Shown in pieces: positions 31,963-38,713 of a stretch of 38,713 bases of DNA. The DNA lies in contig JAMOPC010000361.1 of the NCBI GenBank assembly GCA_027064845.1, positions 1-38,713 of the forward strand, in the 5' to 3' direction. Position numbers and translations under genes: made by a program. Source of the stretch: Desulfurococcales archaeon (GTDB lineage Archaea > Thermoproteota > Thermoprotei_A > Sulfolobales > Desulfurococcaceae). The notes beneath the pieces were generated by a model. That model did not search any database. It worked only from the letters and a program-made list of their open reading frames with translations, and was not told where the DNA came from. Numbering within the stretch: the stretch's first letter is position 1; each line of letters starts with the position of its first letter.

Positions 31963-33681
31963 TTATTGTTTTTTGTGTGTTTTTGTTAGTATTGTTATTG
32001 TTGTTGTTAGGACTATTGTTGTTAGTGTTGCTATGATTATTGTTAGTGTGTCTGTGTCTGTGTGTTCTGGTGTGTTTGGTACGGTTATTTCTCCTCCTAC
32101 TTTCATGGGTTGTCCGGATAGGACGAATACTGCTTCATCTCCTGCTAGGTATTCATCCATTGTTATGTTTGCATAAACAATTTTATGATCTTTATCAATC
32201 CATGTATTACTACACCTCATATATTCTCCAGCACTAGCATTATAGTAGTAAATACCAAGACTATCCTCAGAGACACCAAGTGCTTCTAGATCATAACCAC
32301 TATAATTAACAGCTATCGTTATAGGCCAAACAACATTATTGGTATTATCAATATACAATGCATAATAATAACCTATACCATCAATCGATGCATTACCAGT
32401 AGGCTCATCATCATATGTAGCTATTGCTGTATATACATAGTCTGTGTCATTTATAGTAATAATAGAATTACCAATGACTATATTCATAAGACCCGGGCCC
32501 CATCCAACGCTTCTATAATCCACTACATATGCTACATAACCACCCTTACCAACAGTATAAATAATTCTTGTGGACCAAGGCCACACACCGTATGGAGCAT
32601 ATATGCGATATAAGTGGTCTCTTATGTGGAACCAATAATGTGGATCTATTATTGTTATGTTTTTACCGGCTAATCCATCCTCAATGCCTATGAGTGATAA
32701 GTTTAATGCGGCTTCAACATTCTTTGTATTGTAAAATGTTATATTATAGTAAACAGTATTATTATTATACCAATTCCAACTGCCTGACGACATATTATGT
32801 ATCCCGACGCTCCAAGGAGTCATGTATATTTCGTAGTCTATTGTTCCATCATTATCTATATCCACTCTGAAACTCAATTCATGCCAGTAGTCTAGTCCGT
32901 TGTATTTTGTTGTATTTATTTCTTCTGCTAGATCGAATCTTACGAATAAATGTTTATTATCTGTTGCTATGTAGATAGCTGTGAGGTTGAATTCTTGATA
33001 CGGATTAAGTATTCCATCATCACCATCCACTGCCAACAAGGCATTATCTGGCCAATCACTTGGCTCTCCATCAACAACTATATCCGCATAAGGCACCGTA
33101 TAATTGGGGAAGTAATTGTCAATAGGGTAATCATCACCATAAGTGTTACCTTCGATACCTTGTATCATTATAGTAGATCCACTAGTTATGTTTAACTTAT
33201 CTAATGGAATCATCAGAGTCATAGAATAATCGTCTCCTATAACCCATTCGCCACGCCATTCATAACCTAACCAGGTTCCATTACTAGCATAATAATTAAT
33301 CCATAGATCTGTCCAATTACCCCACTCATAACGTCTGTACCATGAGCCAATAGAAACCTCGTAGCCATCACAAGGAGTTCCTGCGCCCGATCCTGTTTTT
33401 CTATTATTATCCAGATCTAGGCGGAAGCCTAAATACCTACCAATATCATATGACACCGGAGTTCCTGAAGGGAATGGCTTGTTCCATATAGCTTTAATAA
33501 TTAGGTGCGTGCCATTGTCAGTTACTGTTACATTGTCTAGATCTATATATGTTCCAGTCTCTATTCTATCATATGCTATCACAGGATTAGATATATTCGT
33601 ATCAGTAATTACCACCATCGCCACAGTATTAAGTAATAATAATAATGATACAAGAACTGGAAAGAGATGCTTCCTCACCAT
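31963..33681 (-). CDS. Secreted DOMON/CBM9-like surface protein with C-terminal membrane anchor
   Basis: Signal peptide; 'YLGFRLDLDNNRKTGSG...CDGYEVSIG', 'FNLTAIYIATDNKHLFVRFDL' typical of DOMON/CBM9-like folds; C-terminal 'KVGGEITVPNTP' plus Thr-rich TM plus KTHKKQ. Confidence 0.7.
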   Translation of the reverse strand: MVRKHLFPVLVSLLLLLNTVAMVVITDTNISNPVIAYDRIETGTYIDLDNVTVTDNGTHLIIKAIWNKPFPSGTPVSYDIGRYLGFRLDLDNNRKTGSGAGTPCDGYEVSIGSWYRRYEWGNWTDLWINYYASNGTWLGYEWRGEWVIGDDYSMTLMIPLDKLNITSGSTIMIQGIEGNTYGDDYPIDNYFPNYTVPYADIVVDGEPSDWPDNALLAVDGDDGILNPYQEFNLTAIYIATDNKHLFVRFDLAEEINTTKYNGLDYWHELSFRVDIDNDGTIDYEIYMTPWSVGIHNMSSGSWNWYNNNTVYYNITFYNTKNVEAALNLSLIGIEDGLAGKNITIIDPHYWFHIRDHLYRIYAPYGVWPWSTRIIYTVGKGGYVAYVVDYRSVGWGPGLMNIVIGNSIITINDTDYVYTAIATYDDEPTGNASIDGIGYYYALYIDNTNNVVWPITIAVNYSGYDLEALGVSEDSLGIYYYNASAGEYMRCSNTWIDKDHKIVYANITMDEYLAGDEAVFVLSGQPMKVGGEITVPNTPEHTDTDTLTIIIATLTTIVLTTTITILTKTHKKQ

Positions 33682-33833
33682 ATCATCCTACACCCTCAAT
33701 CAATTAACCTGGCTAATTCAAAATTAGAATTTATATATGTGATATAATATAAGTTTATATCTATGCCTAGGTGTTTTATTCACACTTCTTCACCTCAATG
33801 CTAGCTAAACCAGGATATTATGAGCAATATAAG

Positions 33834-34050
33834 GGAACTTGGACCAAACCAGTTCCGCGTGGTTGCCCGTGCTTTATCTTTTGGTGACTATGGGTATTTT
33901 AGTATCTTGCACGGGGCTTCTCCCTCAGCCACTTCATGTGGTTCGGTGGTTCATCGAGGGGCTACATTGACCGCCACCACTTGGGCGGTCTTACGGGTTG
34001 TGGGGGGATGCCGTCATCGGCAAGAGCCTGATGGCTTCATTATCCAAACC
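33834..34050 (-). ncRNA. GC-rich structured element, candidate IS200/IS605-type right end / omegaRNA-like RNA without adjacent tnpB
   Basis: GC-rich island in AT-rich DNA with nested inverted repeats: 34015-34033, 33969-33990 (GACCGCC/GGCGGTC), 33922-33960 (CCCTC/GAGGG), 33865-33917 (GCCCGTGC/GCACGGGG), 33834-33856 (GGAACT/AGTTCC). Minus strand reads '...GAGGGAGAAGCCCCGTGC...TAAAGCACGGGC', like archaeal IS605-family right ends. Confidence 0.5.
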
Positions 34051-34222
34051 TCATAACATCATCTTTGTTTACCCCCATTATTTGTTCTCATAGAAAAGAA
34101 ACATAAATATAGAGACCCCGAAATTCCCAAAACACCCCAAGTACCCAAACAAGCGAATAGTCTACTAGCGTTAAAACAAGTATAGTTGTGTGGAGATCGT
34201 TTTGAAACCATGGATTTTGTGA

Positions 34223-35260
34223 TTAAGTTTTTTGTCCTTTGATAACTATTATTGTGTCTTGTTTTTCTGGTTTTGTTTCTGGGCTTGGTGTTATAGTATA
34301 TGTTTTGTCGGGTTTTATTATGGCTATTATCTTGTAGTTATGTTTTTTGTCTTTTTGGTTTAGTTCTTCTTCGATTTCTCTTATTGTTTTCCCATGGTGT
34401 TTTTCTGTTATCTTTATTTCTACAAGGTCTCCTTTTCCTCGGGCTGATATTATGTCTGTTAGTATTGTTAGTACTCCTGGTTCGAAGAGTGCTGATGCTA
34501 TTGTTCTTCCAAGTATTCTTGTTGAGACTACGTGTTTGGCTCCTGCTTCTCTTAGTAGTTGTTCTGTCTTGGCGTGTTTTACTACTGCGTGTATTTCTGC
34601 TTCTTTGTTTATGGAGCGTATTAGTAGTGTTAGGTATAGTGCTTTGCTGTCATCGCTGAGGCAGAGGAATATGTGTTTTGCTTTCTCGACACCTGCTTTC
34701 CTTAATACATCTTCTGATCCAGGGTCTCCTACTACATAGTCTATGTCTAGTGCTTTTCTTGGTTGTTGTGGTGTTACGAATCCAATGTTTTCCAAATAGT
34801 TGTTTAGTCTGAGTTCATCTATGAGTTCATAGCATGTGTCTGTGTCTCCTATGACTAGTATCTCCTTGTTTTTCAGAGGTGCCATTCCTAGACTCCTCCT
34901 AATACTAAGTGATAAGAACCAATCAGCTATAACTGATATGGTTAGAGTATATGCTATGATACCCATTATTGCGGCGAATCCTGCGACGATCCACCCCAGT
35001 CCTCTTATAGGTGTAACGTCTCCGTATCCTATTGTTGCCATCGTTATGAGACTCCAGTATAGAGCTGTATAGATATCAACATCTTCTCTTCCAGCAACTA
35101 TGTGTTCGCTATAATAGAATAGTAAAGCATTAACAATCCACATCGAGACAAAGAATAATACTACATAAAAGGCTTTCTTCCTCGTAATTCTTCTCCAAAT
35201 ACTTCTCCGTAGTAATCTATAAATTATATGTATCGGCAACCAGTGATCCCCTTTCCCCAC
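34223..35260 (-). CDS. Potassium channel with RCK (TrkA-N/TrkA-C) regulatory domains
   Basis: Selectivity filter 'TIGYGD'; Rossmann RCK 'EILVIGDTDTCYELIDEL' and TrkA-C-like C-terminus. Confidence 0.93.
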   Translation of the reverse strand: MGKGDHWLPIHIIYRLLRRSIWRRITRKKAFYVVLFFVSMWIVNALLFYYSEHIVAGREDVDIYTALYWSLITMATIGYGDVTPIRGLGWIVAGFAAIMGIIAYTLTISVIADWFLSLSIRRSLGMAPLKNKEILVIGDTDTCYELIDELRLNNYLENIGFVTPQQPRKALDIDYVVGDPGSEDVLRKAGVEKAKHIFLCLSDDSKALYLTLLIRSINKEAEIHAVVKHAKTEQLLREAGAKHVVSTRILGRTIASALFEPGVLTILTDIISARGKGDLVEIKITEKHHGKTIREIEEELNQKDKKHNYKIIAIIKPDKTYTITPSPETKPEKQDTIIVIKGQKT

Positions 35261-35707: not shown

Positions 35708-37408
35708 TTATGTTATGCTTGAGAGTGATGGTCCGAGAATTGTTCCTATGAAGTAATTTGTTACATACGTGCTAACATACATTCCGAGACCTGTTAGTAA
35801 TAACATTACTCCTAAGTAGTAGAAAACAGCATATCTCGAGCCAGGATTTACTGCTGTTAAAGTAATAGTGTTTGCAAAAGTGATTATTACGAGCATAATG
35901 TTTGTTAGAAGTGATACATCCTCTTCTCTAATATTGAAGAATTTGAATAGATCAGCAAATTCTGGTGGGACTTGGACAGCGAAGTGAGTTATTATACTTG
36001 AGAATATAGTCACGAAATTTGTGATAAGCATTAATATCAATATTGTCGCTATGTGCATTATGTAAAGTGTTGCCTCGAACGTTTTGAAGACCTGTGCATA
36101 GTTAATTCTTAATCTATAAAGCTCGTTTATGTGGTTTGAAAGCATTGCACCCGCTTCTCTAGTATTTCCACCAGCTTCTATAGTGTCAATGAATATGTGA
36201 CTACTCCTTGAGATGAATTCACTACAAGATTCTTCAGCGAAATATTTCCACGCAATCCTTGGATCAATCCTATTAACAAGTCTTACATAAAATCTTCTTA
36301 AGAGATTCTTTAATTTACCTAGCTCAGCTATAAGTAGAGGCTTTAATGCCTCAATCAGGCTTGGGACAACGCTTAAGTGTTCACCATAGCTTCTAATAAA
36401 GGCTGGGAAAAACATATCGTATTCATTTATTCTTCCTTCATGGATCTTTATAAGTATACCTATAGGTAACATGACTAGTCCGGAGAATATTAAGTACTTT
36501 GAAACTTCTTCAACGTCTAAGATCTTCATCGTATAAGATAAATAGACTATTACAAAAGCAAAGACAAGAGACGACAATATTCCTCCAATACTTATGATCC
36601 TTACAATTAATGGTTTATGTTGGGGTTTGGCTTCGAATAAGGGTTTTCTCACAAATGCTCTCAATAAGATGGCCATTCCTGATAACGTGACTCCAGTAGC
36701 TATCATTGATGTAACCATCATCTTCTGTATTCCACCAAAGATCATGCCTAAGAGGATGAGATTAGCTTGCATAAAGACTAATGCTCCCAAGAGGGTAACA
36801 TATATTCCCAGAACAACTCTGAGCGACTCGATTAGTCTATTATATGCAGATAAGTATTCACTAAACAATGTATTATACTCAATTCTCAAGTATTCTTTTA
36901 TATCACCACCTGTAGCGACAATGGCTGATAGTCTCTGTAAAAACATTTCATCAACCTTATACTTTACTTCACGCGATACAAGTCTTAGTGCTTCCGGAGC
37001 ACTGTATCCCCATTGCCCTATCAGTCCTTGAAGCTTCTTAAACAAGTTTTGATAGTACTTGCTGTAGAGGGGAGTTTCACCAATGTATTTAAACATGAGT
37101 GTTAGAGGAGGATTTCCCGTGACAAGACATCTTAAGTGTATTAGGATAAAAGTTAGATCGTCTGGGACGGGGATTATTCCAAGCCTCTTGATTGCCTTAT
37201 AATAATAGATGAAAAGAAATGAGACAAAAATAACAGTAACTCCTACAATTATGGCGGGATAGAATGGCAAGTATTTTGAGGCGAGATATACAACAATAGT
37301 ATCAAAGATTACAACAGCTATAGTTACCCATTTATGAGTAATTGCTCTCTCAATAAAGGGGTGGATAAGTTCTTTTACTCTATTAATACTTCTTACCCTA
37401 CTAGGCAT
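35708..37408 (-). CDS. Second FlaJ/TadC-like type II/IV secretion membrane protein
   Basis: Multi-TM with 'IVATGGDIKEYLRIEYNTLFSEYLSAYNRLIESLRVVLGIYV' and 'FIDTIEAGGNTREAGAMLSNHINELYRLR'. Confidence 0.8.
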   Translation of the reverse strand: MPSRVRSINRVKELIHPFIERAITHKWVTIAVVIFDTIVVYLASKYLPFYPAIIVGVTVIFVSFLFIYYYKAIKRLGIIPVPDDLTFILIHLRCLVTGNPPLTLMFKYIGETPLYSKYYQNLFKKLQGLIGQWGYSAPEALRLVSREVKYKVDEMFLQRLSAIVATGGDIKEYLRIEYNTLFSEYLSAYNRLIESLRVVLGIYVTLLGALVFMQANLILLGMIFGGIQKMMVTSMIATGVTLSGMAILLRAFVRKPLFEAKPQHKPLIVRIISIGGILSSLVFAFVIVYLSYTMKILDVEEVSKYLIFSGLVMLPIGILIKIHEGRINEYDMFFPAFIRSYGEHLSVVPSLIEALKPLLIAELGKLKNLLRRFYVRLVNRIDPRIAWKYFAEESCSEFISRSSHIFIDTIEAGGNTREAGAMLSNHINELYRLRINYAQVFKTFEATLYIMHIATILILMLITNFVTIFSSIITHFAVQVPPEFADLFKFFNIREEDVSLLTNIMLVIITFANTITLTAVNPGSRYAVFYYLGVMLLLTGLGMYVSTYVTNYFIGTILGPSLSSIT

Positions 37409-37424: not shown

Positions 37425-38713
37425 TTATGTTAATAGATCTCCTCGTAGAAGCCTCTTGTATGCCTCTTCTAGTCCTAATTCATATGTTTTCACAATTGCT
37501 TTGTATACATCATAGTAGTTAACAATATTTTTATCCGCTAGGGCTCGCAAGAACTTTGCTCTGAGATCCAGCTCCTCATATATCAGCTTTATATTCTTCC
37601 TAGAAATACCTCTCATCACAGCTATCTTTTCCTCCAGTAGATAACTAGCTCCCCTACCAGCAAATCTATGAGTATCAGTTGTGGGGTCCCAAGTGAAGAC
37701 TGGAACAGCCGCTATGGAATCCGTAGTCGGGTCATAACCTATAATCTCATAGACAGAAATCATCCTACGCACAAGTAATCCAGTCTTACTATAAACAGAT
37801 GATTGGAACCATGCAATATTCAAGTTATCAAGATTAGTCTTAGGCACTTGGATCGGATAATTCGTAAGCCTCTGCAAAAGCCTCTCAAGATTAGCAGCAT
37901 GAAAAGTAGCCATAACAGGGTGACCAGTATTGTGTAGTGCTACTGGAATGTCTCCGCCTATAAATAGTTCGGTTTCAGGTACAGAAACATCGTATACATA
38001 GCCATGGTATTTCTCTTTTCTCACGTCTATTATTTCTAAAAACGCTATATCGCTCTCTAAGATAATTTTCAACCTATTAAGGATCTCTTTAGAATCTTCA
38101 TCAAGTGTTTCTATATATCTTTCTATAAATGCTATAATTTTCCTAGCTGTTTTTCTCGAAATATATCTTTGCTTTCCACTCCTATACCTACGTACAACAT
38201 AAGTTAATTCGAATGGCAGCTTTGAATCTAGATCATTTGACTCCAGTATACGTATTATTGGTTTTAACGGGATCCTATCACTCCAAGATCTTATTCTACG
38301 TTTATTGAATAACCTAATATGTATATCATAGTATTTCCCATATTTTTTATCACGTATTACAAACATTTTTGACTCAAAACCAGCTAGCCTAGCCAACCAT
38401 ACTAATTGTTTTGCCAAATACTTGTTCTTAGTAGTATACACTACGATTCCTTCACGAATACTTGTTCTCCTAGCATCAGCTAGATATCCCTTAAAGAACT
38501 CTTCTATAACGTCACTGGGAGAGTTCCATAGAATCGAAGGTATGTGTTTTTCTTCAAGTTTCGAGCCAATAAGTGATGCAATAGTGTATGCTAGAGGTGC
38601 ATTATAGACTCTAATTATGTCGTAGCTTTTCCTATTTCTAATTGATACATTGGCTCCTAGTTCTTTAGCAATATTTACTACTTTTTCTATTATCCATTGC
38701 TCGTTCTTACCCA
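37425..38713 (-). CDS. Type II/IV secretion ATPase (FlaI/TadA/KlbA-like) interrupted by an intein; 5' part outside the window
   Basis: C-extein 'TGHPVMATFHAANLERLLQRL...' is the secretion ATPase His-box region. Frame is open past listed ATG 38441 to the window edge (...NEQWIIEKVVNIAKELGANVSIRN...FFKGYLADARRTS...). Confidence 0.85.
   Translation of the reverse strand, partial: GKNEQWIIEKVVNIAKELGANVSIRNRKSYDIIRVYNAPLAYTIASLIGSKLEEKHIPSILWNSPSDVIEEFFKGYLADARRTSIREGIVVYTTKNKYLAKQLVWLARLAGFESKMFVIRDKKYGKYYDIHIRLFNKRRIRSWSDRIPLKPIIRILESNDLDSKLPFELTYVVRRYRSGKQRYISRKTARKIIAFIERYIETLDEDSKEILNRLKIILESDIAFLEIIDVRKEKYHGYVYDVSVPETELFIGGDIPVALHNTGHPVMATFHAANLERLLQRLTNYPIQVPKTNLDNLNIAWFQSSVYSKTGLLVRRMISVYEIIGYDPTTDSIAAVPVFTWDPTTDTHRFAGRGASYLLEEKIAVMRGISRKNIKLIYEELDLRAKFLRALADKNIVNYYDVYKAIVKTYELGLEEAYKRLLRGDLLT
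37929..38713 (-). other. Intein C-terminal portion with LAGLIDADG-type homing endonuclease remnant
   Basis: Blocks F/G: 'GYVYDVSVPETELFIGGDIPVALHN' followed by Thr+1 extein; upstream DOD-endonuclease-like 'FFKGYLADAR...VVYTTKNKYLAKQLVWLARLAGFES'. Junction N|T at 37929/37928. Confidence 0.88.

What the first reader, a model, noticed from the sequence alone, without database searches (positions are those of the whole stretch)
33820..34060. Orphan structured RNA / solo IS605-type omegaRNA-like element without tnpB
Seen: a ~220-bp GC-rich island between two AT-rich genes, carrying at least five nested stem-loops with compensated stems. On the minus strand it ends '...GTGGCTGAGGGAGAAGCCCCGTGC-(loop)-TAAAGCACGGGC', which resembles IS200/IS605 right-end hairpins downstream of archaeal tnpB. 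No tnpA/tnpB ORF is nearby. Inference: a solo (MITE-like or domesticated) omegaRNA able to be served in trans by a TnpB elsewhere, or a new structured ncRNA. The sequence beyond the hairpin (forward positions below ~33865) would be the guide.
Basis: partly seen in the sequence, partly recalled or inferred. Interest (0 to 1): 0.72.

Follow-up and report, generated by a model that had tools for sequence, protein, structure and literature searches.

The report
Archaeal IS607-type mini-transposon carrying omegaRNA end
The structured GC-rich patch is a 304-bp, gene-less relic of a jumping gene in a hyperthermophilic archaeon: it kept both transposon ends and what looks like the guide-RNA end of an RNA-guided enzyme (TnpB) but lost the enzyme itself, and it belongs to the IS607 (serine recombinase) family rather than IS200/IS605.

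Summary
Window 33859-34162 (minus strand) is a mobile, non-autonomous element (MITE) of 304 bp, part of a dispersed family in Desulfurococcaceae. Copies share sharp ends (GACTATT...; ...GCACGGGCAACCAC) with unrelated flanks. In the genome that matches Staphylothermus marinus, one copy interrupts a gene that is intact, with a base-exact empty site, in eight other genomes. A congener carries a complete parent-type element with the same ends, an IS607 serine recombinase TnpA (NCBIfam equivalog, E=4e-58) and TnpB; Y1 TnpA of IS200/IS605 was not found in the window's genus. So it is IS607-type, not IS605. The window's right part is the frameshifted 3' coding tail of such a tnpB, folded into helices with real compensatory changes; a covariance model of it also hits the 3' ends of independent full-length tnpB genes, where omegaRNA scaffolds lie. 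No compatible TnpB was found in the held genome (92% complete), expression is untested, and no empty site was found for this copy. S. marinus IS607 MITEs were reported in 2009, without the omegaRNA link. Service in trans by TnpB/TnpA is plausible but unproven.

The parts
33859..34162 (-). Whole element: 304-bp non-autonomous IS607-type element (MITE), left end at 34162, right end at 33859
   Evidence: Both ends match dispersed copies with unrelated flanks
34118..34162 (-). Left end GACTATTCGCTTGTTTGGGTACTTGGGGTGTTTTGGGAATTTCGG
   Evidence: 88% identical piece at own-genome C209, 85% at C69; shared with tnpB-carrying S. marinus elements (L063, L097, L098) and with the IS607 element G002:C102
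34103..34112 (-). TATA-like AT-rich stretch CTATATTTAT, possible element-borne promoter (inference only)
   Evidence: Several other short copies carry TTTATA/TTTAAA at 51-89 nt from the left end; the window copy lacks the strict motif
33859..33992 (-). Structured RNA region (predicted omegaRNA scaffold, 3' part), modelled as R1
   Evidence: Covariation; covariance model R1 hits 3' ends of tnpB genes not used in training, e.g. L063 E=2e-19, L070 E=2e-13
33984..33990 (-). Helix 1, 5' arm (partner 33969-33975)
   Evidence: All 7 pairs have double compensatory changes
33969..33975 (-). Helix 1, 3' arm
33956..33961 (-). Helix 2, 5' arm (CCCCTC; partner 33920-33924)
   Evidence: 2 of 5 pairs with double changes, 90% of cells paired
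33920..33924 (-). Helix 2, 3' arm
33909..33917 (-). Terminal hairpin, 5' arm GCCCCGTGC (one extra C against relatives)
   Evidence: 96% of cells paired across relatives; stem kept in several S. marinus copies whose loop shrank from 36 to 8-10 nt
33865..33872 (-). Terminal hairpin, 3' arm GCACGGGC
33859..33864 (-). Right terminus AACCAC; the last AC is inferred to be the 2-bp core shared with the target
   Evidence: Conservation stops here; inferred from the empty site of a sister copy
33873..33998 (-). Pseudogenised C-terminal tail of IS607 TnpB: TRKTAQVVAVNVAP / DEPPNHMKWLREKP / VQDTKIPIVTKR*, in three different frames
   Evidence: Frame-by-frame alignment to the TnpB of G002:C102, TRKAGPVVPVDVAPDEPPNHMRWLREKPVQ...
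33839..33858 (-). Host sequence past the right end; would be the guide if an omegaRNA is made (GCGGAACTGGTTTGGTCCAA)
   Evidence: Sequence plus the rule that the right end marks the scaffold 3' end and the guide follows it (PMC10278001); inference

Best explanation
The feature is a miniature, non-autonomous IS607-family element: both transposon ends plus the 3' end of tnpB, which doubles as an omegaRNA scaffold, with tnpA and most of tnpB lost. Supported here: family membership of both ends, repeated insertion of the family at new sites, IS607 (not Y1) parentage, descent of the right part from tnpB coding sequence, and a conserved RNA structure. Inferred: an IS607 TnpA acting in trans joins the ends and inserts the element over a 2-bp AC core (donor joint RG-AC-N, most often T then A). 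Inferred and untested: transcription from inside the left end could give an omegaRNA with a guide read from host DNA past 33859, which a TnpB supplied by a related element could use to cut the restored empty site (predicted motif 5'-RGAC) and so keep the element in place. The window copy may now be a passive relic.
For: Dispersed copies in 14 of 61 genomes. Sharp ends with near-random flanks. A copy inside an ABC/GNAT gene of G024 has a base-exact empty site in G016 and seven other genomes. Parent type in the same genus: G002:C102 has left end, serine TnpA (transpos_IS607, 196 bits against cut-off 110), TnpB (guided_TnpB, 106 against 100) and right end. Y1 TnpA is lacking in this genus. Tail of tnpB in three frames. 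Covariation, and model R1 at independent tnpB 3' ends. Imperfect subterminal inverted similarity (window 3/500 shuffles; L063 0/500), as described for IS607 (PMC6188088). The S. marinus genome paper itself reports IS607 elements and about 260-nt MITEs (PMC2678158).
Against: No empty site for the window copy itself: synteny breaks there. The ends carry AC, not the GG usual for IS607. No compatible tnpB or full-length serine TnpA was found in the held assembly (one Resolvase fragment at a contig end). Parent-type TnpBs have Gln in place of the RuvC-III catalytic Asp in four loci, so that branch may not cut DNA. No expression data. One relative (own-genome C69) shows only weak end-to-end similarity (37/500).
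Confidence: 0.82

Rival explanations
1. An IS200/IS605 (Y1 TnpA) solo element: the terminal hairpin is a TnpA recognition palindrome.
For: A terminal hairpin next to a tnpB 3' end is also typical of IS200/IS605; 3 of 40 family genomes have Y1 TnpA.
Against: The complete relative with the same ends carries an IS607 serine TnpA. No Y1 TnpA in the own genus or in S. marinus, which holds many copies. The left end shows an inverted similarity to the right end, as described for IS607.
Confidence: 0.05
2. A dead relic only: sequence left by an old IS607 insertion, with RNA structure inherited from the parent and no present RNA or trans mobility. (This is a narrower form of the best explanation, not an alternative origin.)
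For: The tnpB tail is frameshifted; no compatible TnpB or full-length TnpA found in the assembly.
Against: Both termini and all three helices are intact in this copy; short copies are the most numerous form in S. marinus, so such elements do move.
Confidence: 0.45
3. A domesticated omegaRNA kept by the host, used with a TnpB or TldR-like protein as an RNA-guided regulator or nuclease.
For: Structured RNA without tnpB; parent-type TnpBs in three genera lack the RuvC-III Asp.
Against: Not found at an orthologous position in relatives (though synteny breaks there); no compatible TnpB found in the genome.
Confidence: 0.07
4. A housekeeping or other known ncRNA (C/D box sRNA, SRP, RNase P) or a small protein gene (78-aa plus-strand ORF).
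For: Weak C/D-box-like hit sR10, 9.8 bits; open plus-strand frame 33820-34056.
Against: sR10 gathering score is 45 bits; no Rfam match at gathering; box D (CTGA) is not conserved in the alignment; the ORF has no Pfam match.
Confidence: 0.02

Closest known systems
S. marinus ~260-nt MITEs related to IS607 elements (PMC2678158, 2009)
   Same: Same left and right ends, similar size, same family of archaea, tied to IS607 tnpB genes; one interrupts the same ABC/acetyltransferase gene seen here
   Different: The paper linked them to the region upstream of the transposase ORFs and counted 14; here the right part is shown to be the tnpB 3' coding tail with a conserved RNA structure; the window copy is a diverged subtype closest to TnpA+TnpB elements
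IS607-family insertion sequences (PMC6188088)
   Same: Serine TnpA with N-terminal HTH, tnpA-tnpB order, imperfect subterminal inverted similarity, no target duplication beyond a possible 2-bp core
   Different: Inferred core dinucleotide AC instead of GG; the window copy has no genes
IS607 TnpB reRNA of the RAGATH-18 type (PMC11061315)
   Same: Guide RNA of an IS607 TnpB
   Different: No Rfam RAGATH-18 match; here the RNA overlaps the tnpB coding end, whereas reRNA is separate from it; known target motifs AGGAG/GAGGG, here predicted RGAC
Archaeal TnpB/omegaRNA of Sulfolobus islandicus (PMC10640517)
   Same: Scaffold at the conserved tnpB right end with hairpins near its 3' end, guide in the non-conserved flank
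   Different: Assigned there to IS200/IS605; target motif TTTAA; no sequence relation tested here
PATEs, palindrome-associated mini-elements of IS200/IS605 (named in PMC7290912; details from own knowledge)
   Same: Gene-less derivatives of a tnpB-bearing insertion sequence
   Different: Derived from Y1 elements

Membership tests
Non-autonomous IS607-type element | Same ends as a complete IS607 element | tested here: met
   G002:C102 left end 2932, right end 4970 around transpos_IS607 TnpA and TnpB
Non-autonomous IS607-type element | Dispersed copies with unrelated flanks | tested here: met
Non-autonomous IS607-type element | Precise insertion of the family shown by an empty site | tested here: met
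   For a sister copy (L064) in 8 genomes; for the window copy itself none was found
Non-autonomous IS607-type element | GG at termini and target (stated for most, not all, IS607 members) | tested here: not met
   AC conserved at both ends in most copies; usual GG
Non-autonomous IS607-type element | Imperfect subterminal inverted repeat between the ends | tested here: met
   Window 3/500 shuffles; L062, L063, L059, L097, L128 0/500; C69 weak
IS200/IS605 element | Y1 TnpA linked to the family | tested here: not met
TnpB omegaRNA | Lies at the tnpB 3' end with the scaffold ending at the right end | tested here: met
   R1 hits at 3' ends of independent tnpB genes; tail homology in the window
TnpB omegaRNA | Conserved RNA structure | tested here: met
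TnpB omegaRNA | Transcribed and bound by TnpB | not testable with these tools
   No expression or binding data
RAGATH-18 reRNA | Match to the Rfam model at gathering score | tested here: not met
   No Rfam match in the window

The most novel reading that the evidence does not exclude
The mini-elements are self-contained guide-RNA genes: a left end with its own promoter plus a full omegaRNA scaffold, so each copy makes a guide for its own empty site and borrows both TnpA and TnpB in trans to move and be retained, using an IS607 branch with an AC core and, for some TnpBs, an altered RuvC site.
Probability: 0.25. Interest if true: 0.65.

Novelty: new variant of a known kind. Interest (0 to 1): 0.42.

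Why it matters
Gene-less elements that keep the omegaRNA end would be a natural test of whether TnpB can serve elements that lack it. S. marinus has full-length tnpB elements and many such mini-elements in one genome, so guide use in trans could be read from small-RNA data. It also reinterprets MITEs published in 2009 and points to an IS607 branch with an AC rather than GG core.

Tried and rejected
Rfam at gathering and at E<=10: nothing credible. tRNA search: none. C450 and C89 in the own genome, weak Cas12f1-like_TNB hits: by their translation a radical-SAM-like protein, not TnpB. C176 in the own genome: broken tnpB with other ends. Empty site at the K+ channel gene: orthologs lack the element downstream, but synteny breaks, so inconclusive. 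Empty site from L059 flanks in G016: only element matches and short gene pieces. Viral contig scans failed twice with no answer. The TATA count script picked up false elements and near-palindromic motifs, so its totals are not used. A PIN-domain copy mentioned in the literature was not joined across its flanks.

Full report
What is there. The GC-rich patch between the genes at 31963-33681(-) and 34223-35260(-) is real. It has no Rfam match and no tRNA. A DNA search found diverged copies in the own genome (C69, C209) and in 14 of 61 related genomes, with 12 matches in one complete genome, G024. G024 (1,570,485 bp) is taken as Staphylothermus marinus because its size, its tnpB elements and the interrupted gene fit the genome paper (PMC2678158); the handle itself is unnamed.

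Boundaries. Copies share a left end GACTATTYGCTT and a right end GCACGGGCAACCAC, beyond which flanks are close to random: at most 0.24 bits at left positions -2 to -12, with A favoured at -1; right +1 T 27/45, +2 A 24/45. The automatic left-end list includes a few false rows. In the window this puts the element at 33859-34162, minus strand, 304 bp.

Mobility. In G024 one copy (L064) splits an ABC/GNAT gene. Joining the flanks with one GAC restores a 651-aa frame. Eight other genomes have the uninterrupted gene, and the aligned joint in each shows the expected three bases at the insertion point. The bases shared by both ends and the target are AC, which fits a 2-bp serine-recombinase core but differs from the GG usual in IS607 (PMC6188088). 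For the window copy no empty site was found: K+ channel orthologs have other downstream DNA.

Family. G002, a congener, has a complete element at C102: left end (2932), serine recombinase, TnpB, right end (4970). NCBIfam calls the first protein transpos_IS607 (196 bits, cut-off 110) and the second guided_TnpB (106, cut-off 100). Y1 TnpA was absent in nine genomes tested and present in only 3 of 40 in the family, all in another genus. S. marinus itself has no serine recombinase match, so there its many short copies have no visible TnpA; the paper reports one truncated first ORF.

Right end is tnpB tail and RNA. The window right part matches the C terminus of the G002 TnpB (TRKTAQVVAVNVAP in one frame, DEPPNHMKWLREKP in the next) and then reads VQDTKIPIVTKR* in a third frame, like the tails of other TnpBs of the group, so two frameshifts have occurred. 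In 14 right ends of this subtype three helices are supported: 38 double-changed cells against 13 +/- 3 in shuffles, none of 500 reaching it, and slid controls fall to 38-54% paired. A model from these 14 (R1) hits the 3' ends of tnpB genes not in training: L063 E=2e-19, L070 2e-13, L112 4e-16, L126 2e-10. In several S. marinus copies the hairpin loop has shrunk from 36 to 8-10 nt while the stem is kept. Single-sequence folding is not remarkable for the minus strand (z=-1.4).

Function. The right end of tnpB elements marks the scaffold 3' end and the guide follows in host DNA (PMC10278001; PMC10640517). By that rule the window guide would run from 33858 downward. Expression, binding and cleavage are untested. 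The held assembly (523 contigs, 92% complete) shows no matching TnpB of the parent type, only a broken one, and a serine recombinase fragment at a contig end. Parent-type TnpBs carry Q where the solved Cas12f-like chain has Asp in its RuvC-III stretch; that this Asp is the catalytic one rests on my own knowledge. So part of this branch may not cut.

Known or new. S. marinus MITEs related to IS607 were published in 2009, linked to the region upstream of the transposase ORFs. The tnpB-tail/omegaRNA reading, the inferred AC core and the congeneric TnpA+TnpB parent were not found in the papers I could search, which cover open-licence papers only.

Noticed in passing
L128 3631-5055, L129, L130, L132 (G002:C102, G034:C1, G009:C103, G009:C27): TnpBs of this IS607 branch have ...CGFTFNAQYVACLN..., i.e. 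Gln at the RuvC-III Asp position, in four loci from three genera; possibly nuclease-altered TnpBs still inside transposons.
   Followed up: partly
L063 899-2119 and relatives: S. marinus-type TnpBs keep the RuvC-III Asp but lack the zinc-ribbon cysteines; their stop codon lies inside the terminal hairpin.
   Followed up: partly
window 37425-38441 (-): C-terminal part of an intein (Pfam Intein_splicing, below cut-off) ending in VALHN-TGHPVMATFHAANLERLL, apparently within a secretion ATPase next to a T2SSF gene at 35708-37408.
   Followed up: partly
G000 contigs C361/C480 and C450/C89: The window's assembly (2.49 Mb, 6% contamination) seems to hold two strains: 90% identical K+ channel genes and near-identical genes on separate contigs.
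   Followed up: no
L097, L099, L102, L104, L105 (G024): Short copies in which the right-end hairpin loop shrank from 36 to 8-10 nt while the stem and terminus are kept.
   Followed up: partly
L003 728-1801: 358-aa open frame on the same small contig as an element copy; by its sequence it looks like a LAGLIDADG-type homing endonuclease (not scanned).
   Followed up: no
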